Below, piece after piece: positions 630 through 44,567 of a stretch of 44,859 nucleotides of DNA. The stretch comes from Spirochaetota bacterium (GTDB taxonomy: Bacteria; Spirochaetota; UBA4802; UB4802): positions 1 through 44,859 of the forward strand of contig JAOAIH010000021.1 in NCBI GenBank assembly GCA_026414805.1, written 5' to 3'. Positions within the stretch are counted from its first letter, which is position 1; each line of letters begins with the position of its first letter. The notes under the pieces were generated by a model. That model was not told the DNA's origin. It worked only from the letters and a program-made list of their open reading frames with translations, and did no database searches. A program made the position numbers and the translations under genes.

Positions 630-1865
630 TTATTTATCTTTTATCAATTGCGGACACCCTTTGATTTTCTTGTCCAGAAATTCAGTAACACTATTAACTA
701 TCTCAATGGCTGCTTTCACAACATCAGCGTGAATGTTTTCTACTGTATCATTCATAGTATGATATACGCTGTGTTGCTTTTCAACTTCAGTGGGGAGAGC
801 AATTAATGTTGTTGCCCGTGCACCAGCCTGTGCAAGTGGTGCAGCATCGGTTGCGCCAGTTCCCGGATACATGGCAAATGTGCTGGCAGCGTATCCTTTA
901 CTATGAGCTGTTGCCACACACGTCTTTGCAAACTCTTCTGAAAGCGTGACAAATCCATTGACATCGCTGGTCAAAAATTTGATTAGTTCTGGCCTGTACA
1001 GACTGTCAATGTTCAGATGATATGTTGGCATACAGCCAATGAGCTTTTTGTATTCATTTGCAAATGCTTTTGATCCTTTGAGGCCACATTCCTCACCATC
1101 AAAGCTTGCAAAAATTAAACGGGTGTAATGTGGGCGATAGTTACTGTAAAATTTTGCCAACACTACGGTAATGGCACTTGCTATTAAGTTATCCCCTGCA
1201 CCTGGCGTTGCACGATTGCTTTTGAAAAAGAGCATCTGCATGTTGAGAATGCCAAGCAGTATAATTACCACCATAAAGATTGCATGCACTGTGTGTAAAT
1301 TATAACTGTATCTATTTATCACAATTAGCCACGCCAAAATAAGTGATCCTACCATGGAAAGAATAATGGATGCAACGCGTATGCGATACAATCGTGGTGT
1401 GGTGCGCATAAACCTGAATTCATACGCACTGTCGTGATGACCACTGATAATGATCTGCTGGCGCACTTCTTTCTTTGGATTAATCATTCCAATGGCATTG
1501 TAGCCTGTTTGTGGTGTGTACAAAAAATCAAATGTGGCTTTGTATAGAATGAACTGACGTATTGCAATACTATTGGCAAGTGTGAATATGAATGCGGCTA
1601 CGATATACAATTTAATGAGTAAAAAAATTACCGCAGCTATGTAGAGCCATGGAACAAGCGTTAAGAATCCTAAAAAAGCGTGTGGATGAGTAATAAAGGA
1701 TTGTAACTGTACGGAGTGGCAATATGCTTTATACAAATAGAAAAATATTCGTGCTGTAAGATGTGAGTGCTCTGAGCAGGATGGCCTTGGGCCAATATTG
1801 TCGATTATAGTTTTTACAATTGTGAAGGCAAAATTGGTGAGGGAGTTAAGTGTTCTTTTTGTCAT
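630..1865 (-). CDS. Membrane-anchored M28-family metallopeptidase
   Basis: A 411-residue zinc aminopeptidase-like protein. The full set of M28 metal ligands can be seen: H143 and D145 in SGHHDS, bridging D225 in GAGDN, catalytic/ligand E258-E259 in DGEECGL, D287 in NIDS and H379 in YHTMNDT. Unlike classic secreted M28 enzymes it has hydrophobic segments before the domain (about 62-105) and a second pair inserted between the first and second ligands (about 163-213). It is therefore probably an integral membrane peptidase. No cleavable signal peptide is obvious. It is transcribed away from the arsenic genes and its substrate is unknown. Confidence 0.85.
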   Translation of the reverse strand: MTKRTLNSLTNFAFTIVKTIIDNIGPRPSCSEHSHLTARIFFYLYKAYCHSVQLQSFITHPHAFLGFLTLVPWLYIAAVIFLLIKLYIVAAFIFTLANSIAIRQFILYKATFDFLYTPQTGYNAIGMINPKKEVRQQIIISGHHDSAYEFRFMRTTPRLYRIRVASIILSMVGSLILAWLIVINRYSYNLHTVHAIFMVVIILLGILNMQMLFFKSNRATPGAGDNLIASAITVVLAKFYSNYRPHYTRLIFASFDGEECGLKGSKAFANEYKKLIGCMPTYHLNIDSLYRPELIKFLTSDVNGFVTLSEEFAKTCVATAHSKGYAASTFAMYPGTGATDAAPLAQAGARATTLIALPTEVEKQHSVYHTMNDTVENIHADVVKAAIEIVNSVTEFLDKKIKGCPQLIKDK

Positions 1866-2226
1866 GGTGTTGTTATGGTAAACTCTATCTTATTTTAGTG
1901 AAGCCTTTTAAAAAAGCGATGTAATTATACATTATTGCATTCTTTAAGTGATTGCAAAATAAATGTATCACAATATTTCCAAAAGAACACAGAGTGTAAA
2001 ATAGTACAAAATTTCTGTAAACAGTCTATTCAAAGCTAAAAGCTAATAGTTAGTAACTATCGCCAGTACTTTAAAAACCCATACAACTACTACGATGTGA
2101 TATAACCTAATTCAAGAACTTTTTATGCATAAAAAAAGTTTTATTAAAGAATAATTTTTTAGAACCTATTTGGTTATTTGGCTATATTGCCAAATATATA
2201 ATAGTTTAAAGAACCAAGGGTATTTT
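1866..2226. other. Intergenic region between the M28 peptidase and arsR
   Basis: A 361-base AT-rich spacer between divergent genes with no open frame worth calling. It holds one copy of the iterated word (CTATCGCC, 2057-2064, in AGTAACTATCGCC) and, at its right end, the arsR operator/promoter described separately. The upstream region of the peptidase must also lie here but shows no clear -35/-10 pair. Confidence 0.6.
2175..2202 (+). promoter_or_regulatory. Likely ArsR operator with -10 box
   Basis: A perfect 8-bp inverted repeat TATTTGGC (2175-2182), a 6-base spacer and GCCAAATA (2189-2196) abut a consensus TATAAT (2197-2202) about 25 bases upstream of the arsR start. ArsR/SmtB repressors typically bind imperfect 12-2-12-type palindromes overlapping their own promoter, so self-repression is the natural reading. 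The -35 element is not clear (TTGGTT at 2170 gives a long spacer). Assignment to ArsR is an inference from position and symmetry. Confidence 0.6.
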
Positions 2227-2772: not shown

Positions 2773-4065
2773 ATGGATTGGAAAGCTGAAGTAAAAAAAT
2801 TATTGTACATCATGGTTATCTTTCTTGCTTTTTATTATTTACCACTTGGGAATCCTCGTTTTAACAATGCAGTTTTTGAAGCATTAGAACTTACCAAATG
2901 GTATGCACGAGAACATGTGTTGCTGTGCCTTGTTCCTGCGTTTTTTATTGCAGGAGCTATCGCCGCATTTGTGAGTCATAACAGTGTCATGAAATATTTG
3001 GGTCCCACCGCACCAAAGGTACTGGCGTATGGCGTTGCATCGGTATCTGGTACAATACTTGCGGTGTGTTCGTGTACGGTGCTTCCACTTTTTGCAGGTA
3101 TTTATACAATGGGTGCAGGATTAGGCCCAGCAACTGCGTTCTTGTATTCCGGGCCTGCCATCAATGTGCTGGCAATTATATTGACTGCACGCGTGTTAGG
3201 ATTAACAATAGGCGTTGCACGGGCTCTAGGTGCAATTTTGTTTAGTGTAATAATTGGCGCAGTGATGCACCTTATCTTCAGGAAAGAAGAAATTCAAAAA
3301 GCAAAAGCAATGATGGATATCCCTGAACCTGAAACAAGGCGTCCACTGTGGCAAACAGTTATTTATTTTTCACTGATGGTTGCAATACTGGTGTTTGCCA
3401 ACTGGGGAAAGCCTGCAACTGCCGAAGGTTTGTGGTATACAATCTTCAGCTACAAATGGGAAATCACTGCTGTTTCTTCAGTTCTTTTTGGACTTACCCT
3501 TGGTGCGTGGTTTGGTGTGAAGTGGTGGAAGATAATTGCTTCTTTTGTTGTTGTGGGTGCTGTAGCAGTGATAGGTAGCCCCATGGTATCATTTGCTACT
3601 GGTATTGTTGCACTTACATTGATTACTGCAACTGAAAAAGGTGAGATGGTACACTGGCTACAGCAAACGTGGTCATTTACACAGCAAATACTTCCATTGC
3701 TACTTGGTGGCGTGCTTGTTGCTGGGTTTTTGCTTGGGCGACCAGGACATGATGGCATTATTCCCTCAGAGTGGATTAGTACTGCTGTTGGGGGTAATTC
3801 CCTATTTGCCAATTTCATTTCCTCACTGATGGGTGCATTTATGTACTTTGCTACACTCACCGAAGTTCCAATTCTTCAGGGATTACTTGGTAGTGGAATG
3901 GGGTATGGACCAGCACTTGCTTTGCTTTTAGCAGGGCCAGCACTGTCTCTTCCTAGTATGCTGGTAATACGCAGTGTTATTGGTACAAAAAAGACTGTTA
4001 TCTATGTGTCGCTGGTTGTAATTATGGCAACAATTTCAGGACTTATATTTGGGATGATATATTAG
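2773..4065 (+). CDS. arsP: ArsP/YraQ-family permease
   Basis: A 430-residue polytopic membrane protein of the COG0701 permease family, whose characterised member ArsP exports trivalent organoarsenicals. The signature AVCSCTVLPLFAGIYTMGAG carries the conserved Cys-Ser-Cys (C99, C101), and the halves are related (GPAINVLAII and later GPALSLPSMLVI). About ten membrane segments are visible. AGAGGA at 2759-2764 favours the ATG at 2773 over a GTG six bases earlier. It is followed 11 bases later by a small thioredoxin-like gene, a pairing common for this family next to ArsR. Family members may also be generic metalloid permeases, so the organoarsenical role is inferred from family and context. A copy of CTATCGCC lies inside the gene at 2957. 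Confidence 0.85.
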   Translation: MDWKAEVKKLLYIMVIFLAFYYLPLGNPRFNNAVFEALELTKWYAREHVLLCLVPAFFIAGAIAAFVSHNSVMKYLGPTAPKVLAYGVASVSGTILAVCSCTVLPLFAGIYTMGAGLGPATAFLYSGPAINVLAIILTARVLGLTIGVARALGAILFSVIIGAVMHLIFRKEEIQKAKAMMDIPEPETRRPLWQTVIYFSLMVAILVFANWGKPATAEGLWYTIFSYKWEITAVSSVLFGLTLGAWFGVKWWKIIASFVVVGAVAVIGSPMVSFATGIVALTLITATEKGEMVHWLQQTWSFTQQILPLLLGGVLVAGFLLGRPGHDGIIPSEWISTAVGGNSLFANFISSLMGAFMYFATLTEVPILQGLLGSGMGYGPALALLLAGPALSLPSMLVIRSVIGTKKTVIYVSLVVIMATISGLIFGMIY

Positions 4066-10246: not shown

Positions 10247-10299
10247 ATAATCTGATGCTATTATCATGAGCTATCGCCACCATTATACAGGAGGTATGT

Positions 10300-13829: not shown

Positions 13830-15038
13830 ATGGCTACTGGAATTAAAGATAAAGTTGCAATTATAGGAATGGGATGCACAAAATTTGGTGAGCGGTGGGA
13901 TGCAGATGCAAATGCACTTATGGTAGAGGCTTTTAATGAGGCGATAGCTGATGCAGGTATTGACCCCAAAGAGATTCAGGCAGCATGGCTTGCTACCTGT
14001 TTTGATGAGGTCAACGTGGGTAAAAGTGCTCTGTCAGCATCAATAGCATTACGGCTACCAAATATCGCAGTAACCCGTGTTGAGAATTTCTGCGCAAGTG
14101 GCACCGAGGCATTCAGGGCAGCAGTGTATGCGGTTGCATCCGGTGCGTATGATATTGTGCTTGCAATTGGTTGTGAAAAGCTCAAGGATATTGGGTATGG
14201 AGGGTTACCCGAATTCAGCCAGGCTATTGGTATTTTAAACAGCCTTTGGTTTCCTAATATAACCGCCCCGGGCTGCTTTGCCATGCTTGCAGGAGGATAC
14301 TGCGCAAAGTATGGCTTAAAGATGGAAGATGTAAAGCGAGCCATGGCACATATATCAGTCAAAAGCCACGCAAACGGTGCACTCAATCCCAAAGCGCACT
14401 TGCAGCGCCCAGTTACAGAAGAGCAGGTATTACAATCACCCATGATTGCGTATCCGCTTGGCCTTTTTGACTGCTGTGGTGTGAGCGATGGTGCTGCGTG
14501 TGCCATCGTGTGCAGCATTGATGTGGCTAAAGGATTGAAGAAAAAAAATTTTGTAACAGTGAAGGCGCTCCAGATTTCTGTTTCAAATGGTGAGGAAATG
14601 GCATTCTCCAACTGGGATGGCGCACATGTAGTAAATACTGAAAAAGCTGCTGTGCGTGCCTATCAAGAAGCAGGTATAAAAAACCCACGTGAAGAGTTGA
14701 GCCTTTTAGAAGTACATGACTGTTTCTCAATAACCGAGCTTGTGACAATGGAAGACCTTCACATCTCTGAACGTGGTAAAGCTGTGAACGATGTCCTGGA
14801 TGGCTTCTTTGACAGTACAGGTAAAATTCCCTGTCAGATTGATGGTGGACTTAAATGTTTTGGACATCCAATTGGCGCATCAGGGCTTAGGATGGTGTAT
14901 GAAGTCTATCTCCAATTGCATGGAAGGGCTGATAAACGCCAATTGAAGGATCCAAGGTTAGGGCTTACGCATAACCTTGGCGGCTTTCCCATGTTGAATG
15001 TAGTGAGTGTTGCGATAGTGGGCCGATACAACAATTAA
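13830..15038 (+). CDS. SCP2-type thiolase (acetyl-CoA acetyltransferase family)
   Basis: A 402-residue thiolase of the SCP-x/archaeal kind. It shows the nucleophile C88 (ENFCASGTEAF), H296 in the HDCFSITE box and H346 in GGLKCFGHPIGASG. The usual second cysteine (CxGG) is replaced by THNLGGFP, as in SCP2-type thiolases. It would cleave 3-ketoacyl-CoA, condense acyl-CoAs, or act as a retro-aldolase with the DUF35 partner as in sterol side-chain systems. AAGGAGG before the ATG and the 11-base gap tie it to the preceding fusion protein. Copies of GCGATAG lie within it at 13941 and 15012. Confidence 0.9.
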   Translation: MATGIKDKVAIIGMGCTKFGERWDADANALMVEAFNEAIADAGIDPKEIQAAWLATCFDEVNVGKSALSASIALRLPNIAVTRVENFCASGTEAFRAAVYAVASGAYDIVLAIGCEKLKDIGYGGLPEFSQAIGILNSLWFPNITAPGCFAMLAGGYCAKYGLKMEDVKRAMAHISVKSHANGALNPKAHLQRPVTEEQVLQSPMIAYPLGLFDCCGVSDGAACAIVCSIDVAKGLKKKNFVTVKALQISVSNGEEMAFSNWDGAHVVNTEKAAVRAYQEAGIKNPREELSLLEVHDCFSITELVTMEDLHISERGKAVNDVLDGFFDSTGKIPCQIDGGLKCFGHPIGASGLRMVYEVYLQLHGRADKRQLKDPRLGLTHNLGGFPMLNVVSVAIVGRYNN

Positions 15039-15063: not shown

Positions 15064-15093
15064 TTGACAAAATATTCTTGCTTTTGATGTATA
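15064..15093 (+). promoter_or_regulatory. Putative dapA promoter
   Basis: A perfect TTGACA (15064-15069) is followed, 18 bases on, by TGTATA (15088-15093) within a run of alternating TA that extends to 15104. Transcription would start near the left arm of the GGCGATAG hairpin, giving a leader of some 55 bases. The leader is too short for a lysine riboswitch. Confidence 0.5.
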
Positions 15094-15102
15094 TATATAG
15101 TA

Positions 15103-15125
15103 TAGGCGATAGTAACTATCGCCTA
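15103..15125 (+). terminator. Hairpin made of two inverted GGCGATAG words
   Basis: TAGGCGATAG (15103-15112), loop TAA, CTATCGCCTA (15116-15125): a perfect 10-bp inverted repeat followed by AATTTTTTAT. It has the form of an intrinsic terminator for the thiolase operon, but it lies at or just after the likely dapA start point, so it could also act as a leader hairpin. It is built of two copies of the octamer that is scattered through the whole window. Confidence 0.55.
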
Positions 15126-15157
15126 AATTTTTTATAAAACCTGAAAGTGAGGATTGC

Positions 15158-16036
15158 ATGTTTGAAGGTGTTTTCACAGCCCTTGTTACTCCGTTTAAAA
15201 ATGGCAAAATTGACTATAATTCACTTGAGAAAATTATTGAGCATCAGATTGCAGGTGGGGTTGATGGAGTTGTTCCCATGGGGACAACTGGTGAGTCGCC
15301 CACAGTAAGTTATGAGGAACATGAAGAGTTCATTGTGCGCGTTGTAAAAATGGTAAATAAGCGAGTAAAAATTATCGCTGGTACTGGTTCCAACTCAACT
15401 GATGAAGCCATTTATCTTTCAAAAGCAGCGCAGGATGCGGGTGTGGATGCTGTGCTTTTGGTTAACCCATATTATAACAGGCCCCCACAGCGTGGACTTA
15501 TTGCTCATTTTGAACAAATTGCAACAGCAATATCTATTCCGGTGGTATTGTACAATATTCCAGGAAGAACAGGCATAAATTTTTTACCTGAAAGTGTTGC
15601 AGAACTTGTAAAGCGTGTTCCCAATATTGTAGCCATGAAGGAAGCTAGTGGTGATATTGCTCAAATGATGAACCTGATTGAACTATGTGGCGACAGAATC
15701 ACCCTACTTTCTGGTGATGATAATTTGTTGTTGCCTGTGCTGGGTATTGGTGGAAAAGGGATTATATCAGTGCTATCAAATTTATTGCCTGCAGATGTAA
15801 AAGCAGTAGTTACGTTATTTCAATCTGGTAATTATGAAGAAGCTAGGAAGAAATTCTACAAATTGTTACCTTTATGTCGTGCGATGTTCTATGAAACAAA
15901 TCCTATTCCCATAAAGGCAGCTATGGAAATGGCAGGATTCTGCTCATCTGAGGTGCGTTTGCCACTTGTTCCACTGTCAGAAGATAATCGCAAAAAACTA
16001 AAGGAAGCATTAATTGCCTATGGAGTAAAACTATGA
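15158..16036 (+). CDS. dapA: 4-hydroxy-tetrahydrodipicolinate synthase
   Basis: A 292-residue (beta/alpha)8 enzyme condensing pyruvate with aspartate semialdehyde in lysine/meso-diaminopimelate synthesis. GTTGES near residue 43, Y132 in LYNIPGRT and the Schiff-base K161 in VAMKEASG are all in place, and length matches the family. GAGGA lies before the ATG. The stop codon overlaps the dapB start by four bases (ATGA), so the two are translationally coupled. No T-box or lysine riboswitch is visible ahead; control may be only through the promoter and the hairpin at 15103. Confidence 0.97.
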   Translation: MFEGVFTALVTPFKNGKIDYNSLEKIIEHQIAGGVDGVVPMGTTGESPTVSYEEHEEFIVRVVKMVNKRVKIIAGTGSNSTDEAIYLSKAAQDAGVDAVLLVNPYYNRPPQRGLIAHFEQIATAISIPVVLYNIPGRTGINFLPESVAELVKRVPNIVAMKEASGDIAQMMNLIELCGDRITLLSGDDNLLLPVLGIGGKGIISVLSNLLPADVKAVVTLFQSGNYEEARKKFYKLLPLCRAMFYETNPIPIKAAMEMAGFCSSEVRLPLVPLSEDNRKKLKEALIAYGVKL

Positions 16037-19975: not shown

Positions 19976-20119
19976 GAGATGCATAATTTTTAAGAAAATG
20001 TTTTGAAGGTTTTGGCGATAGCTGCAGCCAACATGCAATTTATAGTTAAGAATGTGAATGAAAATATTTAACACCTGGTTGCAGGTGATGATGAAGAATA
20101 ATCAAATAGGGGGAGGTTT

Positions 20120-22373: not shown

Positions 22374-22458
22374 AGGGATTGTTTGGCCCATGAACTATCG
22401 CCTCACTTTCCCTATGTTAGAGTATAGGGTATTAATTATATTTATGTCAATATAAAAA

Positions 22459-22633: not shown

Positions 22634-24299
22634 GAAAAATGTAGTGATAGCACTATTGCTTTTACCTGTATTTGTGTTATTGAGCTCTGCTGTCTATGCT
22701 GAGCATCCCGACATTATTGCTACTATTATAAATGAGGAACAAAATAAAGATCATTCAGATGAATTGCAACAGATGTTGCATTTTATTGATGATTTATATA
22801 ATAATCTTAGTACCCGTGTAAAAAATGGTGAAAAAATAGTTATATTTTTTGATCCGGCTCATGGAATTGATGATGATGGTAAGTGGGAAGGTGAAAAAAC
22901 AGGCAGGTTGAGTTGTACTGGTTTACCCGAAGAATATTATTCACTGGCGATTTCGCGTAAACTCTATCAACTATTGAAAAAGAATCCATATATTGACGTT
23001 GTAAGTACTCAGGATTATATAGATGCTTTAGAAGGCAAGACTGATAATTATTACAATATAACCTTCAGAGAAACAGTAGAACTGGCAAAAAATGCAAAGG
23101 CAGTTCTGGTAATTTCAGAACACTTTAACAACACTGCTGCAATATTCAAGGCGTATGGGCTTGCAAATGTTAAGGGTATACATATAACCTATAGTAATGG
23201 GAACGCATACCTTACACATATTAGGGAAGAGCATAAAGGATTTTTGACATTGTACAATAAATTTGATGCCAGTGGTTTTTCATATACAGTGGCTAGTAAA
23301 GTTAAAGACAAACTGTTAACAAATGGCTTGAAGGTAAATAGCTGGAATTATGGTACTGTAGCAGATGATCGGTTTAGTTACTTTGTTAATTATCCCATCT
23401 CGGTAATATTTGAATCAGGTTTTATATCCAATCCCGATGATGAAGCAATAGTAAACAATCCTGAATCCCAAAAGCTTATTGCACAGTCACACTATGAAGC
23501 TATTCTGGAAACTATAGCACTTACTTTTGGTATAGATATTTCAGGCTTCTGGGGGCCGCGTATAGTTGATGATGTTAATCCGTCAAGAAATTTAATGTTA
23601 CTCAAATTATCACGAATTGCCTGTTACTATATTTCAAAAAGTGATACTGAAAAAGGATTGCAGGTGCTGTCGCAATTGCTAAAAGTTTGTGATCCAGTTA
23701 AAGATGCTGCAATTATAGAAAACATTCATGACATGAAATACCGTGTAGAGCGATCAAGGGAGTTATATGCTAAAGCTATCGCCCTGAAAAGAAAGGGAAA
23801 AATCAAAAGTGCTCGCTATACAATGCGAAAGGCAATAGGACTTGTCAGCAGGTCGCCGGTCTTTTATGAATTGCGTAAAACATATCGCAGTGAATACAGG
23901 GATCTTAAAGAAGTAGAACAGCAGCAATCTATTGCACCAAAATACCCCATTCCTGATAAGGCGGTTAATACAATGGCTTCGTCCATTATCAAACCGGTAT
24001 TAGTGGTACTTGAAAAAGATATGACTCCACAAGAAGCCATTTTCAATGCACTACGGTGTGATGAGACAACATTGAAAAAGATAGCCGGGCAGTTTGTTCA
24101 GGCAAAAGTAAAGGTTGGTAAAAAAAGATTTGAAAAACCAACAGGAGAAGGTATATACATAGTACAGCTTTCACCAAAAGGGAATATCAGGAGTGTAAAG
24201 CGTGTTGCAATTGTAAAACTTGATCCCTTTAAGTATCAAAATCAGTTGTATTTAAAGAATTCGTATTGTGTGCCAAAAGAAAAAAATAAATCATTATAA
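22632..24299 (+). CDS. N-acetylmuramoyl-L-alanine amidase (Amidase_3) with long C-terminal region
   Basis: A 555-residue exported protein (signal peptide MKNVVIALLLLPVFVLLSSAVYA). The zinc amidase fold spans about 65-295: ligand H in FFDPAHGIDDDG, E in GLPEEYYSLAISRKL, H in VISEHFNN (usually SIHAN) and catalytic E in VIFESGFISNPDDE. It should cleave the N-acetylmuramoyl-L-alanine bond of peptidoglycan in the periplasm. Residues 300-555 form a second region of helices (TPR-like alternation around 320-420) and a C-terminal strand-rich segment, and I do not recognise it. The usual SIHAN motif is altered to SEHFN, which keeps the metal ligand. Its 3' end overlaps the next gene by 32 bases. Confidence 0.85.
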   Translation: MKNVVIALLLLPVFVLLSSAVYAEHPDIIATIINEEQNKDHSDELQQMLHFIDDLYNNLSTRVKNGEKIVIFFDPAHGIDDDGKWEGEKTGRLSCTGLPEEYYSLAISRKLYQLLKKNPYIDVVSTQDYIDALEGKTDNYYNITFRETVELAKNAKAVLVISEHFNNTAAIFKAYGLANVKGIHITYSNGNAYLTHIREEHKGFLTLYNKFDASGFSYTVASKVKDKLLTNGLKVNSWNYGTVADDRFSYFVNYPISVIFESGFISNPDDEAIVNNPESQKLIAQSHYEAILETIALTFGIDISGFWGPRIVDDVNPSRNLMLLKLSRIACYYISKSDTEKGLQVLSQLLKVCDPVKDAAIIENIHDMKYRVERSRELYAKAIALKRKGKIKSARYTMRKAIGLVSRSPVFYELRKTYRSEYRDLKEVEQQQSIAPKYPIPDKAVNTMASSIIKPVLVVLEKDMTPQEAIFNALRCDETTLKKIAGQFVQAKVKVGKKRFEKPTGEGIYIVQLSPKGNIRSVKRVAIVKLDPFKYQNQLYLKNSYCVPKEKNKSL

Positions 24300-25280: not shown

Positions 25281-25390
25281 CATCCTGAATCCCGATTTGC
25301 ATCGGGACAGGCATGATTTAGTAATTTGTCACATTGAACTCGTTTTAGGATCTCAATGAAAAATAGATTCAGGGGTAGGTCCGGAATGAC
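25281..25390. repeat. Dispersed short palindromic repeat copies
   Basis: Between the radical SAM and nucleosidase genes lie degenerate units of the same repeat as at the window end. One has a strong stem CCCGAT-TTGC-ATCGGG (25291-25306) inside a CATCCTGAAT...GGACAGG frame. A reverse-type unit ends AGGTCCGGAATGACATT near 25390. The stem is not followed by a T-run, so it is not a classical terminator. Confidence 0.55.
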
Positions 25391-25432
25391 ATTGATAAAA
25401 GCCTATTTGTTTTATAGAAAGGGAGAGACATC

Positions 25433-27367: not shown

Positions 27368-29764
27368 CTATGGAAGCAAAGTCATTATGAATTTTGCATT
27401 ACGCTGGATCAATTCACTATCAATGTAATCATTGTGATATTTCATCTCAACGTACATTTGTGTTTGATTGCAATAGTATGGGCTTGCTGTATGGCCGCTG
27501 ATACCTGTAGGAATTACAGTGAGTGATTCATTGAGATTATGCATGGGGTATATATGCCGCTGTGAAGCGCCGTCGGTTATTACAAATGGATTAGTAAGCT
27601 TATACGAATAGGGGCATACAGTATGGAAGCTGCCACCAACAGGGTATGGTCCTCTATTATATCTAAACATCCAGTCTAAAATCTTAACCTCTCCCAAAGG
27701 GTGTTTTAAAACCAATTTATGAGCGCTTCCCCATTTCCATTTTACAGGATTGTTGCCAAAGTCATTCTTACAAGATAATACTGCATCTTTCAGTGATCTG
27801 GCAACTATATCATTGAAAGATTCTTTAGGTGTTGTTGTTACATCATCGCACCAGATTGAACCATTGTTTATCCGTATGGTATCGATGAAAAGATTTACAA
27901 GAACTCTTTCCTTCATGAGTTCCTGGTAGAGTTCATCTCCCAATTCATCATGGAAGATATTGTATGCAAGCTTAATGTAAAATGTATCAAACAGTGTAGC
28001 AGCGATGCTATCAACACTGTAGCTGCAATCCCACTCTTTTATAATGGTGTAAATATTTTTCAGCTGGTCCATTAAGGAGCTATCGCCCTCAATAATTTGT
28101 AAGAGTAATGGCTTCCACGTTTTTGCTAATTCACTAACCTGATCAGTTTGGATTGTTTTAAAGTCATTAACTGATAATTTTTCTTTTTGTGTTAGAAGTG
28201 TGACTATACGGTTATACCGCCATGGCATTTCAAACCAATAGCTGATGTAGAAGGGATATTTTTCCATAACAGTTTTATTGTTGGCTGAGGCAACAAAGCC
28301 CTGTGAAGGATTAAACACATGAGGCTGTCTTTCAAATGGAACAATTCCTTTCCAATCATATTCGCTAGTCCAACCTGGATTTATCATCATAGGATTGCCT
28401 TTACGGATAGGGATGCCCGCTGCACAGTATAATCCTATATTGCCGTTAACATCTGCATACACAATATTTTGACTTACCGAGCGAAAATGACTTATAGCAT
28501 TTGTAAAATCTTTCCAGTTTTTTGCACGGTTCAGCATGTACACTGTTAACAGTTCATTGCTTGGTTCATTGCCCATCCATCGCATTGAAATTACGTCATT
28601 CATTTTCTTAAAATCAGTAATCACTGGTCCGCGGTGAGTGAAAAGAATTTCTTTTGTTACAGATTGGCCCCCCTTTATTTTTATTTCTTCCTTAACTACA
28701 GTAAAGTTTTTCCATGTGCCATTAAACTGGTACTGCAGTTTATTAGCAGGATTCACTTTTTCCAGGTAGAAATCCATATCATCAACCATTACATTAGTCA
28801 TACCCCAGGCAATATGCTCATTGTGCCCGCATACTATACTTGGCTCTCCGGGGATTGCAACCCCGGTAACATTGAGTTTGCCATCAACTACCTGATGCAT
28901 CTGATACCATATTCCGGGTATGAAAAGCCCAAGGTGCATGTCATTTGCAAGTATTGGTTTTCCGGTTACACTTTTTTTACCAGAAACAGCCCAGTTATTG
29001 CTGGCAAAAAATATTCCAGCACCAATGTCTATAAGCTTTTGTGTTGCACCAAGAATTGTGTCCGAAAGCTCTGGTAAATCCTCTTGCCGTACATATTGTT
29101 GATAGATGACATCAGTAATATATTTAACATCTGGTGTTAACGCTTTTGCATGAACCTGGTCAACTTTTTTCCATATCTTGTACAGAATGGTTTCGGTAGT
29201 CCATGGCATAGTAAGGTCCCACGCCATATAGCCAATTAAGTTGACTGAATCTTCCACCTTCCAGTTTTCTGGTTTATATCCCAGGATTCTAAATTCAAGT
29301 GGTAGATTTTCGTTGTAATGAAATATATACTGATTCACACCGTCAGCAAATGCCTGCAAATGAGCAATCACGTTTGGGTCGGTATGCGCTATTACATATT
29401 TTGATTTCTTTGTTATTTGTAATGCACGCATGAGCACGTCGGTTTCAAGCATGCTATCACCAAAAATTTCGGACAGCCTTCCAGTGGTAACACGGCGAAG
29501 CAAATCCATTTGCCACATTCTATCTTGAGCCATTATAAATCCCGTAGCAAGATAAAGGTCTTTTTCATTCTTTGCATAGATATGGGGTATGCCATACTCA
29601 TCGCGGTAGACCTTAACAGGTTGCAACAATCCCTTAAGCTGCAACTGCCCTGAATATTGTGGCAATCCTGATTTTGCCAAGTTTGTAATATATAGAACTA
29701 GTGCCAGGCATAGGGCAATTATCAAAATAATTAAGCCAATAATTATTTTCTTTCCCCTATTCAT
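27368..29764 (-). CDS. Penicillin acylase family (Ntn) hydrolase
   Basis: A 798-residue precursor with an N-terminal membrane/signal segment (residues 6-27) and an S45-family fold. VYRDEYGIPHIYAKNEKDLYLATGFIMAQDRMWQMDLLRR is the alpha-chain start. S255 in FFASNNWAVSG would be the autocatalytically exposed N-terminal nucleophile of the beta chain. Known members cleave amides such as penicillin G, cephalosporin side chains or acyl-homoserine lactones. Genomic context does not point to a substrate. GGGAGG precedes the ATG at 29764. Length fits the family and no disruption is seen. A CTATCGCC copy lies within it at 28080. Confidence 0.92.
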   Translation of the reverse strand: MNRGKKIIIGLIILIIALCLALVLYITNLAKSGLPQYSGQLQLKGLLQPVKVYRDEYGIPHIYAKNEKDLYLATGFIMAQDRMWQMDLLRRVTTGRLSEIFGDSMLETDVLMRALQITKKSKYVIAHTDPNVIAHLQAFADGVNQYIFHYNENLPLEFRILGYKPENWKVEDSVNLIGYMAWDLTMPWTTETILYKIWKKVDQVHAKALTPDVKYITDVIYQQYVRQEDLPELSDTILGATQKLIDIGAGIFFASNNWAVSGKKSVTGKPILANDMHLGLFIPGIWYQMHQVVDGKLNVTGVAIPGEPSIVCGHNEHIAWGMTNVMVDDMDFYLEKVNPANKLQYQFNGTWKNFTVVKEEIKIKGGQSVTKEILFTHRGPVITDFKKMNDVISMRWMGNEPSNELLTVYMLNRAKNWKDFTNAISHFRSVSQNIVYADVNGNIGLYCAAGIPIRKGNPMMINPGWTSEYDWKGIVPFERQPHVFNPSQGFVASANNKTVMEKYPFYISYWFEMPWRYNRIVTLLTQKEKLSVNDFKTIQTDQVSELAKTWKPLLLQIIEGDSSLMDQLKNIYTIIKEWDCSYSVDSIAATLFDTFYIKLAYNIFHDELGDELYQELMKERVLVNLFIDTIRINNGSIWCDDVTTTPKESFNDIVARSLKDAVLSCKNDFGNNPVKWKWGSAHKLVLKHPLGEVKILDWMFRYNRGPYPVGGSFHTVCPYSYKLTNPFVITDGASQRHIYPMHNLNESLTVIPTGISGHTASPYYCNQTQMYVEMKYHNDYIDSELIQRNAKFIMTLLP

Positions 29765-29946: not shown

Positions 29947-30396
29947 ATGCAATTTGAAACTACAACATGCATAACACAGGAACATCGTGAACTTTTGGAG
30001 TATTATGCTGATATGTGTGGCCTATCAATGAGTGATATAATAACATCACTTATACACTATGCTGCGTTATGCGAAAAAAGAATTCCAAAAACTTTTAGAA
30101 ACATACAGTATAGAAAAAGGGATAAGAAGAAATGGGGAAGAATTCATCTGTATATTAGATATAACGAATATGAATTTTTACTGGATATGAAGAAAATGTG
30201 GAAGATGAGTGTTGCATTGTTGATTGAGTATTGCATTGAAAATGTGTTAGAAGAATTTATAAAAGTACTGTTGCAAGAAGACGATACATATAGTTATCGG
30301 TTTACAAATTACACATTTAAGTTTACAAAGGTTCATGGATTTCATAGTTATCAAATAATATGGGGATTACCACCAGAAAAAATGCCACAAACATAA
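29947..30396 (+). CDS. Hypothetical basic protein with two possible ribbon-helix-helix units
   Basis: A 149-residue soluble protein with no motif I can name. Two stretches have the strand-helix-helix rhythm of ribbon-helix-helix DNA-binding units: residues 3-45 (TTCITQEHRELLEYYADMCG and on) and 65-105 (RIHLYIRYNEYEFLLDMKKM and on). They are separated by a very basic linker (RNIQYRKRDKKKW). The C-terminal 40 residues are aromatic. TGGGAGG precedes the ATG. It stands alone, divergent from the penicillin acylase. A DNA-binding role is only inferred from the pattern. Confidence 0.55.
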   Translation: MQFETTTCITQEHRELLEYYADMCGLSMSDIITSLIHYAALCEKRIPKTFRNIQYRKRDKKKWGRIHLYIRYNEYEFLLDMKKMWKMSVALLIEYCIENVLEEFIKVLLQEDDTYSYRFTNYTFKFTKVHGFHSYQIIWGLPPEKMPQT

Positions 30397-31278: not shown

Positions 31279-31298
31279 ATGCTTGGCGATAGCTCCTG

Positions 31299-32339: not shown

Positions 32340-33395
32340 ATGTGTGGCATAGTAGGTATCATAAACACTGATCGTACCAAAATTGACGGAAGCTATATTC
32401 GCGAGGCAATCCGTATCCAAAATGAGCGAGGGAACGGCCTTGGAGGTGGTTTTGCAGCATATGGCATTTATCCTGAACATAAAGATAATTATGCAGTTCA
32501 TATTATGTATCAGGCAGGCCGGCACAGTGATGTTATTAAAAAAATTGAAAATTTTCTGGAACAAAAAACCAAGGTTCATCATTCTGAAGAAATCCCTGTG
32601 TATCCAACAAGCGTGATTCCATCAGGACCATACTTTAAACGCTACTTTGTTAATCCCTTAAAAGAACAAATACCCGTTGGTAAAAATGAAGATGATGCTA
32701 TGGTTGATATTGTGATGGCAATTAACAAAATGGGAGATGCGTATGTCATTTCTTCAGGTAAAGATATGGGGGTATTTAAGGGAGTAGGATTCCCTGAAGA
32801 CATTGCTGATTTTTTCCGCATACAGGATTACAAAGGCTACATGTGGATTGCTCATAACCGTTTTCCCACCAACACTCCTGGATGGTGGGGTGGTGCCCAT
32901 CCGTTTACAATACTTGATAAAGCTGTAGTCCATAATGGTGAGATAACAAGTTATGGCACCAATAAACGGTGGCTTGAGATGTTTGGTTACTTCTGCATGC
33001 TTCAGACTGATACTGAGGTTATAAGCTACATCTTTGACAAGCTTACCCGCAAAGATGGCTTGAGTGTTGAGGATGCCTGCTTTGTGATGGCACCTGCATT
33101 ATGGGAAGACATAGAATATGAAAAGTCACATAAAAAAATGCTTCTGCGCCAGATGTATGGTCAGGCTATTGTTAATGGTCCGTTTGGAATAGTACTCACA
33201 CATTCAGGTGGGGCGATAGTTCTTAATGATAGGAACAAACTTAGGCCAGTAGTTTGTGCGCGTGTTGGCTCAACCTACTACGCATCATCAGAAGAATGCA
33301 GTATACGATTACTATCTCCAAAAGTTGATGAGCTTTGGTCGCCAAAAGGTGGTGAGGCTGTTATTATAAATTTAGCTAAGGAGGAGGCGGCATAA
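32340..33395 (+). CDS. gltB: Glutamate synthase, glutamine amidotransferase subunit/domain
   Basis: A 351-residue class II glutamine amidotransferase, the separately encoded first domain of a split (archaeal-type) glutamate synthase. The nucleophile is C2 (MCGIVGII), exposed after Met removal. MWIAHNRFPTNTPGWWGGAHPF and VHNGEITSYGTNKRWLE are the standard substrate-binding motifs. It releases ammonia from glutamine for the FMN domain encoded next. GAGGGA is before the ATG. The stop overlaps the next start by one base (TAATG), so the subunits are coupled. Confidence 0.9.
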   Translation: MCGIVGIINTDRTKIDGSYIREAIRIQNERGNGLGGGFAAYGIYPEHKDNYAVHIMYQAGRHSDVIKKIENFLEQKTKVHHSEEIPVYPTSVIPSGPYFKRYFVNPLKEQIPVGKNEDDAMVDIVMAINKMGDAYVISSGKDMGVFKGVGFPEDIADFFRIQDYKGYMWIAHNRFPTNTPGWWGGAHPFTILDKAVVHNGEITSYGTNKRWLEMFGYFCMLQTDTEVISYIFDKLTRKDGLSVEDACFVMAPALWEDIEYEKSHKKMLLRQMYGQAIVNGPFGIVLTHSGGAIVLNDRNKLRPVVCARVGSTYYASSEECSIRLLSPKVDELWSPKGGEAVIINLAKEEAA

Positions 33396-34933: not shown

Positions 34934-37108
34934 ATGGTGTTGACTTCAACTTTGAATGCCAAAGGCATTTATTATAAAATGTTAAATCGTCAAATACGGG
35001 AGATTATCGCAAAGGGCGAATCTTCTATAACGCTTGAGAATGTGTTAGGCCAACGATATATTGGTGGAGGGCTTAACAACACTGTCACTATAACAATTAA
35101 TGGTACACCAGGGCAGGACCTTGGTGCATTTATGAATGGACCTGTAATAATTGTCCATGGCAATGCCCAGGATGGCATTGGCAATACCATGAATAGTGGT
35201 ACTATCATTGTGCACGGAAAAGCAGGTGAGATCCCCGGGCATTCAATGCGGGGTGGACAAATTTTAATTCGCGATGATGTTGAGTACCGTGCAGGTATAC
35301 ACATGAAAGAATATGGCCAACAGATTCCTCTACTTGTTATTGGTGGTACTGCAAAAGATTATTGTGGTGAATACATGGCTGGTGGGCGCGTTGTGGTGTT
35401 GAACCGTTTTGATAAAAAAGAACCAGTTGGAAATGATATTGGAACGGGTATCCATGGTGGTGCTATTTATATCAGGGGAAATGTTGATTCGCGTCGTTTG
35501 GGTGTGGGCGCAATTATGGCACAAATGGACAATGAAGATATTGAGTTTTTGCAGAAGGTGCTTAATACATTCAAATCAGCGTTTCCTTATGTTGAGCTAT
35601 CGCATATAAACTTACACGACTTTGTAAAGATTACTAAAAAAGGGCACAGGCCCTTTGCTAGCCTGTATGCTCCCGCGATGAATATCAAATCAAAAAAACC
35701 AATACATCTTAACCTTACACCGCCATGCACCTATGCATGTCCAAGTGGCATTCCAACCCCTATTTTTATCAATCTTATCAAGGACGGAAAGATTAAGGAA
35801 GCACAAATGCTTATGGATGAATACACCCCATTTAGGATGTCGGTGTGTGGTACAGTGTGCCCTGCGCCTTGTATGGATGCATGCAGCCGCAATATGATTG
35901 ATGGGCCAATGAATATTCCCTACTTAGCGCGCGAGTACTATCCTGATTTTAATCCTTTGGTATATGGAAAGCCAAAGGATAAAAGAATAGCAATTATAGG
36001 TGCAGGCCCAGCCGGGTTGTCAGCTGCATGGCAACTAGCACGAAGAGGGTATAAAGTAACGGTATTTGAAAAAACTGCTGATATTGGTGGTAAAGTGCGC
36101 ATGGCAATTCCTAAAGACAGGCTGCCTGATGAAGTGTTAAGCAAAGATTTACAAAGGATTAAAAGTTTACCTATTGAGTTTAAAGTTTCTACTCCTGTTG
36201 ATAAAAAGCTTTTTGCAAAAATTTATAATGACTTTGATGTTGTGCTTGTTGCTACTGGCGCGTATGTTTCGCGGATGCTTCAGGTTAAGGGTGGGGAGCG
36301 CATTGTGTCAGGCCTTGAGTTTTTAATTGGCATAAACGATGGCAATCCAATGGACCTTAGCGATAAAGATGTTGTTATCATTGGTGCAGGCAATGTTGGC
36401 ATGGATATTGCATGTGAATCATGGCGTCATGGTGCAAAAAGTGTTACAGCGGTTGATATTCAAAAGCCGCTTGCTTTTGGAAAAGAAAAAGAAATGGCTG
36501 AAAGGCTTGGCACAAAAATTTTGTGGCCACGTACTGTTGATCATATTGATGAGTCGCATATCCATTTTACTAATGGAGAGTCCATCAAAGCTGATGTAGT
36601 ATTTATAAGCATTGGCGAAAGGCCGGATCTTTCATTTTTAGGTGATACGGTGTTGTTAAATGAGCGGGGGGCGATAGTAACCGGTGATAAATCCTTCAAA
36701 ACTTCAGACCCAAAAGTGTTTGCCTGTGGGGATATTGTGAAAACAGGACTTATCACTGATGCAATTGGAATGGGCAGAATTGCTGCAATGGAGATACATG
36801 CAATGCTTGCAGACGAGGATTTTATCTATCCTGAAAAGACTCTGGTACCAAGACGAAGGATTAATATTGCATATTTTGGTGGTGAAACACGTGAAGTTGA
36901 CAGATGTATAAGTTGTGGCACATGTATTTTCTGTGATAAATGTGTGGAGGCATGTCCCCAGGGAGCAATCACTCGCAATGGAGAAATTTTTACAATTGAT
37001 CCTGAATTGTGTACAGCATGTTATACCTGTGTCAATGTGTGCCCACGTGGTGCGTTGCAACCGGGTGATTTTGACGAGGTAGTGCAGGACGTTCTTTTCA
37101 AGAAGTGA
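34934..37108 (+). CDS. gltD: Fusion of GltB C-terminal (GXGXG) domain with GltD-type NAD(P)H oxidoreductase
   Basis: A 724-residue fusion. Residues 1-240 form the GXGXG beta-helix domain that closes glutamate synthase large subunits (NGTPGQDLGAFMNGP, NAQDGIGNTMNSGTIIVHG, GGAIYIRG). Residues 250-645 are a GltD-like FAD/NAD(P)H enzyme: N-terminal cluster cysteines (CTYACPSGIP, CGTVCPAPCMDAC), FAD loop IAIIGAGPAGLSAAW, second dinucleotide loop VVIIGAGNVGMDIA and the late ACGDIVKTGLITDAIGMGR. The C-terminal 70 residues carry two [4Fe-4S] motifs (CISCGTCIFCDKCVEACP, CTACYTCVNVCP). Electrons from NAD(P)H would pass to the FMN subunit. AAAGGAGG before the ATG; it follows the broken subunit by 14 bases. 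Confidence 0.9.
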   Translation: MVLTSTLNAKGIYYKMLNRQIREIIAKGESSITLENVLGQRYIGGGLNNTVTITINGTPGQDLGAFMNGPVIIVHGNAQDGIGNTMNSGTIIVHGKAGEIPGHSMRGGQILIRDDVEYRAGIHMKEYGQQIPLLVIGGTAKDYCGEYMAGGRVVVLNRFDKKEPVGNDIGTGIHGGAIYIRGNVDSRRLGVGAIMAQMDNEDIEFLQKVLNTFKSAFPYVELSHINLHDFVKITKKGHRPFASLYAPAMNIKSKKPIHLNLTPPCTYACPSGIPTPIFINLIKDGKIKEAQMLMDEYTPFRMSVCGTVCPAPCMDACSRNMIDGPMNIPYLAREYYPDFNPLVYGKPKDKRIAIIGAGPAGLSAAWQLARRGYKVTVFEKTADIGGKVRMAIPKDRLPDEVLSKDLQRIKSLPIEFKVSTPVDKKLFAKIYNDFDVVLVATGAYVSRMLQVKGGERIVSGLEFLIGINDGNPMDLSDKDVVIIGAGNVGMDIACESWRHGAKSVTAVDIQKPLAFGKEKEMAERLGTKILWPRTVDHIDESHIHFTNGESIKADVVFISIGERPDLSFLGDTVLLNERGAIVTGDKSFKTSDPKVFACGDIVKTGLITDAIGMGRIAAMEIHAMLADEDFIYPEKTLVPRRRINIAYFGGETREVDRCISCGTCIFCDKCVEACPQGAITRNGEIFTIDPELCTACYTCVNVCPRGALQPGDFDEVVQDVLFKK

Positions 37109-43960: not shown

Positions 43961-43973
43961 CAGTAACTATCGC

Positions 43974-44567
43974 CTACTCAAATGAAACTTTAGGGGCTTG
44001 TTTTGCACCCTCTTCAGCTTTAAAGTACTCTTTGCGCTCTAAGTGAAGCAAGAGGCTGTTGGTTATGTTGTAAGGAAAGATTCGTATTGATGAATTGAAT
44101 TCCTTGACTGCTTCATTGTAGCGCTGGCGTGCCACGTTAATGCGATTTTCAGTGCCTTCAAGCTGGTGCATGAGATCGGTGAAATGCGCGTCAGCTTTTA
44201 AATTTGGATAACGCTCAATAACCACCATAAGGCGTGCCAGTGCACTAGAAAGCTCTCCCTGTGCAGCCTGGAATTGGGCTATCTTTTCAGGGTTGCTTAA
44301 GTCTTTTGGCGATAGTTGAATGGAAGTGGCCTTTGCCCGCGCTTCAATGACAGCCTGCAGTGTCTGCTTTTCGTGCGCGGCATAACCTTTAACAGTAGCT
44401 ACCAGGTTTGGAATAAGGTCAGCTCTTCGCTGCAGCGCCGATTCTAAGTCACCGTATGCTTTGAACACTTCTTCTTCAAGCATCTGAAGTTTGTTGTATC
44501 CGCATCCGGTAAAAGAATAAAGTGAAAGTGCAATAATAACCGGTAATACGTAGGAAAATTTTTTCAT
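43974..44567 (-). CDS. lemA: LemA-family lipoprotein
   Basis: A 197-residue protein. GGAGGAACAAT before the ATG at 44567 selects this start (MKKFSYVL) over 44594. There is a lipobox TGC near residue 22, then the LemA helical repeat: [57 protein letters not shown], ending with the typical [22 protein letters not shown]. The domain forms a long antiparallel helical bundle outside the membrane. It starts the operon with two TPM genes. The gene carries GGCGATAG at 44308-44315. Confidence 0.93.

What the first reader, a model, noticed from the sequence alone, without database searches (positions are those of the whole stretch)
15103..15125. Inverted pair of the iterated word forms a terminator-like hairpin before dapA
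TAGGCGATAG-TAA-CTATCGCCTA followed by AATTTTTTAT is the only place in the window where two copies face each other. Uptake sequences in Pasteurellaceae and Neisseria commonly occur as such inverted pairs at gene ends and serve as terminators. Here it sits between the thiolase stop and dapA, at the likely dapA transcription start.
Basis: partly seen in the sequence, partly recalled or inferred. Interest (0 to 1): 0.55.

Follow-up and report, generated by a model that had tools for sequence, protein, structure and literature searches.

The report
Hairpin of iterated word before dapA
The hairpin is real but is simply two copies of a short word meeting head to head; the surprise is the word itself, which one genus of uncultured spirochaetes carries about 800 times per genome and keeps almost unchanged, much like the DNA uptake tags known from Neisseria and Haemophilus.

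Summary
Observation confirmed. 15103-15125 is a perfect 10-bp inverted repeat (TAA loop) made of two GGCGATAG copies, followed by a T-run, between a thiolase stop and dapA. Its reading as an uptake-sequence-style terminator is only partly supported. It looks like an intrinsic terminator (-13.5 kcal/mol; 19th of 176 T-tailed hairpins by energy), but it is the only one of the 176 that contains the word. Facing pairs are no commoner than random placement gives (9 in five genomes, 7.6 expected). The other five facing-pair loci lack a T-run. The hairpin also lies downstream of a conserved dapA promoter-like block, so a strong terminator there would also stop dapA. Three congeners keep the hairpin; a fourth (dinB upstream, not thiolase) lacks it.

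The larger result is the word. GGCGATAG[CT]T[CA][CA]TG is a non-palindromic, strand-neutral, degenerate motif with 745-847 octamer copies in each of five genomes of one Spirochaetota genus, not enriched in other genomes searched. Copies are conserved (49/65 against 15% for control 8-mers), also at third codon positions; the arm differs between species. This anatomy matches DNA uptake sequences, which a 2025 paper says are known in only two families. Uptake itself is untested, and no dedicated competence pilus was found.

The parts
15064..15069 (+). TTGACA, candidate -35 of the dapA promoter, inside a 23-nt block (CTTGACAAAATATTCTTGCTTTT) invariant in five congeners
   Evidence: Alignment A1. 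The consensus scanner did not list it, because its spacing to a -10 hexamer in this genome is 20, outside the scanner's 16-18.
15090..15099 (+). TATATATATA, candidate -10 region of dapA; transcription start inferred at about 15100-15108
   Evidence: Sequence and alignment; the position is an inference.
15103..15125 (+). Perfect 10-bp inverted repeat with TAA loop (the reported hairpin)
   Evidence: Kept in G001, G003 and G004, absent in G002.
15105..15112 (+). Word copy 1, GGCGATAG; its arm TAACTA runs into copy 2
15116..15123 (-). Word copy 2, GGCGATAG, with the better-matching arm TTACT
15128..15133 (+). T-run after the stem; a T-run is kept in G002 where the hairpin is absent
13830..15038 (+). 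Thiolase ORF upstream
   Evidence: PF22691, PF00108.
15158..16036 (+). dapA, dihydrodipicolinate synthase
   Evidence: PF00701, E 1.7e-96.
1133..1140 (+). word copy
2057..2064 (-). word copy
2957..2964 (-). word copy
10271..10278 (-). word copy
13940..13947 (+). word copy (inside the thiolase ORF)
20014..20021 (+). word copy
22395..22402 (-). word copy
23776..23783 (-). word copy
28080..28087 (-). word copy
31285..31292 (+). word copy
33212..33219 (+). word copy, exact in all four congeners
36670..36677 (+). word copy
43967..43974 (-). word copy
44308..44315 (+). word copy

Best explanation
The hairpin is a local by-product of a genome-wide iterated DNA motif, tTTkkGGCGATAG[C/T]T[C/A][C/A]TGnnAA. 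Two copies overlap head to head in the 5' leader of dapA, at the frequency random placement would give. The motif itself is most likely an uptake-sequence-like recognition tag of this spirochaete genus: a surface DNA-binding protein would prefer DNA carrying it, so that imported and recombined DNA keeps restoring the core. In RNA the palindrome is predicted to fold into a strong stem next to a U-run. I think it exerts at most partial termination, damping thiolase read-through and perhaps early dapA transcripts; it is not a dedicated terminator of the kind that paired uptake sequences form in Neisseria. Shown here: motif, copy number, strand neutrality, genus restriction, core conservation, chance-level facing pairs, predicted hairpin stability, promoter-like block upstream. 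Inferred: uptake, receptor, any termination. My split for the hairpin's own role: some termination or attenuation 0.45, no role beyond the two words 0.40, 5'-end mRNA protection 0.15.
For: Word 823 against 58 for the reversed control in the genome. 745-847 copies (10- to 14-fold over control) in 5 of 5 congeners; in the 54 other relatives at most 1.8-fold. 13-mer 198-319 copies in 5 of 5 congeners and 0-2 in each of 41 others of the order. 14-mer 116-181 in 5 of 5 and 0-4 in each of 387 others of the phylum sample. Logo with fixed core and degenerate arm. Copies in all five stop-free frames. 54 with and 45 against the gene strand. Core exact in 49 of 65 ortholog comparisons against 383 of 2564 for same-composition 8-mers. 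Third codon positions 110/133 identical against 55% elsewhere. Arm shift between species, C at position 8 in G000 and T in the other four. Facing pairs at chance. One of 176 T-tailed hairpins contains the word. Invariant TTGACA block upstream of the hairpin in all five species, also where thiolase is not the upstream neighbour. Stem -13.5 kcal/mol, z -6.1.
Against: No uptake experiment exists. PF03772 (ComEC) was found in 4 of 5 congeners but not in G000, and it is equally common in relatives without the word. No PilT over the cut-off in any of 20 genomes; the one secretion operon read in full looks like type II secretion, and G002 had no PilB/GspE-type match at all although it carries the word. 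For the hairpin: ranking 19th of 176, and 20 of the 26 strongest (-12 or lower) T-tailed hairpins sitting at gene 3' ends, both favour a real terminator. No other obvious T-tailed stem was seen between thiolase and dapA in G000 (sequence). All six distinct facing-pair loci lie between genes or at a gene start. Facing pairs 100-200 nt apart were 6 against 1.2 expected in the sampled DNA, though orthologous loci are counted repeatedly there.
Confidence: 0.55

Rival explanations
1. The hairpin is the intrinsic terminator of the thiolase operon, built from two uptake-type words as in Neisseria.
For: Stem plus U-run; within the best ninth of T-tailed hairpins; about 64 nt after the thiolase stop. 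In G002, where thiolase is elsewhere, the dapA hairpin is absent and thiolase has its own classical T-tailed stem.
Against: It lies downstream of the conserved dapA promoter-like block, so it would also stop dapA. Facing pairs are not in excess and the other five loci lack T-runs. The T-run is kept in G002 without the stem.
Confidence: 0.25
2. The hairpin is a dapA leader element: an attenuator, or a 5' stem that protects the dapA mRNA.
For: Predicted start at about 15100-15108 puts the stem at the very 5' end. Stem kept in G001, G003 and G004, in G003 with a 7-nt longer loop. z -3.6, -3.0 and -4.3 for the G000, G001 and G003 leaders.
Against: The arms are identical in the four species that have the stem, so there is no covariation. 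Both arms are words, which are conserved anyway. The stem is absent in G002 (leader z +0.8), which keeps the promoter block. No Rfam family matches at E 1 or better.
Confidence: 0.25
3. The iterated word is a replication- or recombination-oriented motif such as Chi or KOPS.
For: RecB-, RecC- and RecD-sized ORFs sit together in the genome (named from size, order and N-terminus only). Hundreds of copies are typical of Chi (recalled).
Against: No polarity: 54 with and 45 against genes (p 0.42); 40 forward and 37 reverse in windows of positive GC skew, 7 and 4 in negative. The degenerate arm and the single-genus restriction do not fit.
Confidence: 0.08
4. The word is a HIP1-like iterated site linked to a DNA methyltransferase or another intracellular DNA-binding protein.
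For: Many copies, both strands, mostly in genes; shares GGCGAT with extended HIP1 (recalled). HIP1 is tied to orphan methyltransferases (PMC4390886, start of abstract in the search listing only).
Against: The word is not palindromic and has a one-sided degenerate arm and flanking A/T preferences. No methyltransferase search was made.
Confidence: 0.25
5. The word is a remnant of a mobile element or a coding artefact (a frequent peptide).
For: Many copies.
Against: No strong similarity beyond about 24 nt around the core. All five stop-free frames on both strands. Third positions conserved.
Confidence: 0.02

Closest known systems
Uptake signal sequence (USS) of Pasteurellaceae
   Same: Hundreds of copies, non-palindromic core of 8-9 bp plus degenerate flank and A/T preference, no orientation bias, mostly in genes, lineage-specific (PMC1939737, PMC1852404, passages). 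H. ducreyi also favours outward close pairs near 25 nt (PMC1852404, passage).
   Different: Different sequence and phylum. Density one per 3.9 kb. Almost never in terminators (1 of 42 T-tailed hairpins at 3' ends, against 17-29% of terminators). No uptake shown, no receptor known.
DNA uptake sequence (DUS) dialects of Neisseriaceae
   Same: Genus-restricted word with an invariant part and dialect-like shifts between species (PMC3630211, passages).
   Different: In Neisseriaceae inverted pairs are numerous and their DUSs do not overlap (PMC3630211, passage); N. meningitidis has 231 close hairpin pairs (sum of Table 4 of PMC1852404). Here there is one facing pair in the genome, and its copies overlap.
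Rho-independent terminator
   Same: GC-containing 10-bp stem, short loop, T-run.
   Different: Sits after, not before, the promoter-like block of the next gene; two A's between stem and T-run; no 3'-end data.
HIP1 of cyanobacteria
   Same: Highly iterated octamer.
   Different: HIP1 is a palindrome (GCGATCGC; PMC4390886, abstract start); this word is not and has a one-sided arm.

Membership tests
DNA uptake sequence (DUS/USS) | Short word over-represented hundreds to thousands of times | tested here: met
   823 against 58 reversed control; 745-847 in 5 of 5 congeners.
DNA uptake sequence (DUS/USS) | Non-palindromic core with degenerate flank | tested here: met
   Logo from 90 copies.
DNA uptake sequence (DUS/USS) | No orientation bias | tested here: met
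   only contigs were available, not a closed chromosome.
DNA uptake sequence (DUS/USS) | Lineage-restricted with dialects | tested here: met
   for restriction; for the C/T shift at position 8.
DNA uptake sequence (DUS/USS) | Close inverted pairs used as terminators (usual, not defining) | tested here: not met
DNA uptake sequence (DUS/USS) | Competence machinery (ComEC, pilus, DNA receptor) | tested here: inconclusive
   ComEC in 4 of 5 congeners, none in G000. No PilT over the cut-off in 20 genomes; the operon read is type-II-secretion-like. Receptor not searched for.
DNA uptake sequence (DUS/USS) | DNA carrying the word is preferentially bound or taken up | not testable with these tools
   Needs an experiment; the congeners identified here are uncultured assemblies.
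Intrinsic terminator | Stable stem followed by a T-run | tested here: met
Intrinsic terminator | Located after a gene and before the next promoter | tested here: not met
   The conserved TTGACA block lies upstream of the stem; the promoter itself is inferred.
Intrinsic terminator | Transcripts end in the T-run | not testable with these tools
   No RNA data.
Chi/KOPS | Strand polarity relative to replication | tested here: not met
   (proxies: gene strand and GC skew on contigs).
HIP1 | Palindromic octamer GCGATCGC | tested here: not met
   The word is GGCGATAG.

The most novel reading that the evidence does not exclude
A genus of Spirochaetota has independently evolved a self-recognition uptake sequence with species dialects, a third lineage besides Neisseriaceae and Pasteurellaceae and the first outside the Proteobacteria. 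It would be read by an unknown receptor without a recognisable type IV competence pilus, and it would not have been co-opted for termination except by accident at dapA.
Probability: 0.45. Interest if true: 0.85.

Novelty: new variant of a known kind. Interest (0 to 1): 0.62.

Why it matters
[quoted passage not shown] An uptake-type motif in a spirochaete genus would show that the trick evolved more than twice. It would also give a clean case in which the motif is hardly ever used in terminators, which separates the uptake role from the termination role debated for Neisseria and Haemophilus. If the motif is not for uptake, it is still a selected genome-wide DNA signal of unknown reader.

Tried and rejected
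Rejected: a general terminator role for word pairs; Chi/KOPS; peptide or mobile-element artefact; a known RNA family at dapA (no match at E 1 or better). Covariation could not help, since the arms of G000, G001, G003 and G004 are identical. A long-range pairing between the promoter spacer and the dapA ribosome-binding site appears in folds of three read-through leaders, but it has no compensatory change and would exist only in read-through RNA. Other genera of the phylum showed no comparable iterated word in 40-102 kb samples of eight genomes; G008 had a 10-mer at 7 copies, not followed. The literature search for the word itself returned 649 papers holding the letters; the ten listed looked like primers and unrelated sequences by title. 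Searches for uptake sequences with spirochaetes listed no paper on a spirochaete uptake sequence; only openly licensed PMC papers are held.

Weak points of my own tests: gene calls are a home-made ORF and codon-score method. Ortholog comparisons are pooled over four related genomes, so the p-values overstate independence. Orthologous pairs are counted more than once in the pair counts; merging by eye leaves 6 distinct facing loci and about 16 distinct outward loci (16 against 7.6 gives p 0.005, still against an expectation not merged by orthology). Genome sizes of G001-G004 are rounded by the tool. The dialect test used counts rounded from the percentages. For one search, 65 of 84 possible comparisons (21 words in four genomes) could be aligned; 19 were dropped for lack of alignment. 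In one search, 17 of the 28 outward pairs and all 9 facing pairs had loci to examine.

Full report
What is there. The window carries a perfect 10-bp inverted repeat at 15103-15125 with a TAA loop and a T-run at 15128-15133. It lies between a thiolase ORF (13830-15038) and dapA (15158-16036), both identified by Pfam. The two arms contain one GGCGATAG each. The octamer occurs 16 times in the window against 0.39 expected, and 823 times in the 3.24-Mb, 186-contig assembly against 58 for the reversed control.

The organism. dapA relatives at 92% and 85% identity are Spirochaetota assemblies. The tool puts G001-G004 in the same genus as the window.

The word. Built from 90 copies in 434.5 kb of the own genome, the motif is GGCGATAG followed by [C/T]T[C/A][C/A]TG, with T/G-rich positions just before and AA at positions 16-17 after. 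One-mismatch forms at core positions 1, 3 and 4 (counted from 1) are also over-represented against reversed controls, so exact counts understate it. In an enlarged sample of 580 kb, 99 of 125 copies lie in called genes and 26 outside, against 88.8% coding sequence, so there is a modest intergenic enrichment (p 0.0016). Genic copies use all five stop-free frames and lie 54 with and 45 against the gene.

Distribution. Five of five genomes of the genus hold 745-847 octamer copies, 10 to 14 times the reversed control; the 54 other relatives searched reach at most 1.8 times, and the one other genus of the family is below its control. The 13-mer GCGATAGYTMMTG occurs 198-319 times in each congener and 0-2 times in each of 41 other genomes of the order. 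The 14-mer occurs 116-181 times per congener and 0-4 times in each of 387 other genomes of the phylum. Samples of 40-102 kb from eight other genomes showed no word of similar density.

Conservation. Aligning 65 kb to four congeners (74-79% identity), the octamer is exact in 49 of 65 alignable comparisons against 383 of 2564 for 8-mers of the same composition. Inside genes, third codon positions within words are identical in 110 of 133 cases against 55% elsewhere. Flanking positions return towards the background level, while the arm varies within its allowed letters. The window's species prefers C at position 8 (53%), the other four prefer T (70-84%). At shared sites, C in G000 with T in the relative was seen 14 times and the reverse never (comparisons not independent). 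This looks like a dialect shift.

The pair. With a spacer of 0-30 nt, facing pairs number 1, 2, 1, 3 and 2 in G000-G004, 9 in all against 7.6 expected from random placement. Four of the nine are the dapA pair and its orthologs. Outward pairs number 8, 8, 1, 4 and 7, 28 against 7.6. So the orientation in excess is the other one, and 13 of the 17 outward pairs examined lie in genes. Facing pairs lie between genes in 8 of 9 cases, the ninth at a gene start; only the dapA locus has a T-run.

Terminators in general. In the 434.5-kb sample I found 176 T-tailed hairpins. Of the 26 with -12 kcal/mol or lower, 20 lie at gene 3' ends, so this genome does use intrinsic terminators. The dapA hairpin ranks 19th. 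It is the only one of the 176 that contains the word, and thus 1 of the 42 at 3' ends. In Neisseria about 55% and in Pasteurellaceae 17-29% of high-confidence terminators contain the uptake word (PMC1852404, passages).

The dapA leader. The block CTTGACAAAATATTCTTGCTTTT is invariant in five species, including G002, where the gene upstream is a DinB-like ORF (named from its N-terminus) and thiolase sits on another contig with its own classical T-tailed stem. Together with the TATA-rich stretch after it, I read it as the dapA promoter, although the consensus scanner did not list it because the spacing in the window's species is 20. The stem then lies at the 5' end of the dapA RNA. G001, G003 and G004 keep both words and the stem, G003 with seven extra loop bases; G002 has neither, yet keeps the T-run. 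Because both arms are words, and words are conserved anyway, this does not show selection for the stem.

Interpretation. The hairpin is best seen as two uptake-type words that happen to overlap head to head in a transcribed leader. The RNA stem is predicted to form (-13.5 kcal/mol, z -6.1) and may cause some termination or attenuation, but a strong terminator here would shut dapA off. The word matches published uptake sequences in anatomy: copy number, degenerate flank, strand neutrality, coding and non-coding placement, and dialects (PMC1939737, PMC3630211, PMC2397512, passages). What is missing is uptake itself and its machinery. ComEC-family proteins are present in 4 of 5 congeners, but also in 15 of the 15 other relatives tested. 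No PilT passed the cut-off in 20 genomes, and G002 had no match at all. The secretin-ATPase-platform-pseudopilin operon resembles type II secretion (the pseudopilins are named from their N-termini and order only). A HIP1-like or other intracellular reader therefore remains open.

Novelty. A 2025 paper says that only Neisseriaceae and Pasteurellaceae are known to discriminate DNA this way (PMC12616744, passage). My searches for spirochaete uptake sequences listed none. I file the motif as a new variant of a known kind, with membership in the uptake-sequence class unproven.

Noticed in passing
window 30166-30319 (inside ORF 29947-30396): Matches dozens of places in the four congeners, often at contig ends; a dispersed repeat family. 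The 149-aa ORF has no Pfam match.
   Followed up: no
window 25281-25394: Intergenic stretch also repeated in several congeners.
   Followed up: no
G004 sample and window: A second iterated word, CCGGAATGAC/GTCATTCCGG (13 copies in 96 kb of G004; ATTCCGG 13 times in the window), possibly an inverted-repeat element.
   Followed up: no
L070-L086 (outward pairs): Outward word pairs 9-30 nt apart exceed chance (28 against 7.6) and sit mostly inside genes with A/T-rich spacers; the reason is unknown.
   Followed up: partly
G342 contigs C125 and C146: The only non-genus genome with 4 copies of the 14-mer, on two contigs; perhaps stray contigs of this genus.
   Followed up: no
window 15070-15085 and 15146-15155: The promoter spacer can pair with the dapA ribosome-binding region in folds of three read-through leaders; no compensatory changes.
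   Followed up: partly
L169 2208-11049: Three adjacent large ORFs that look like recC, recB and recD (named from N-terminus, size and order only).
   Followed up: no
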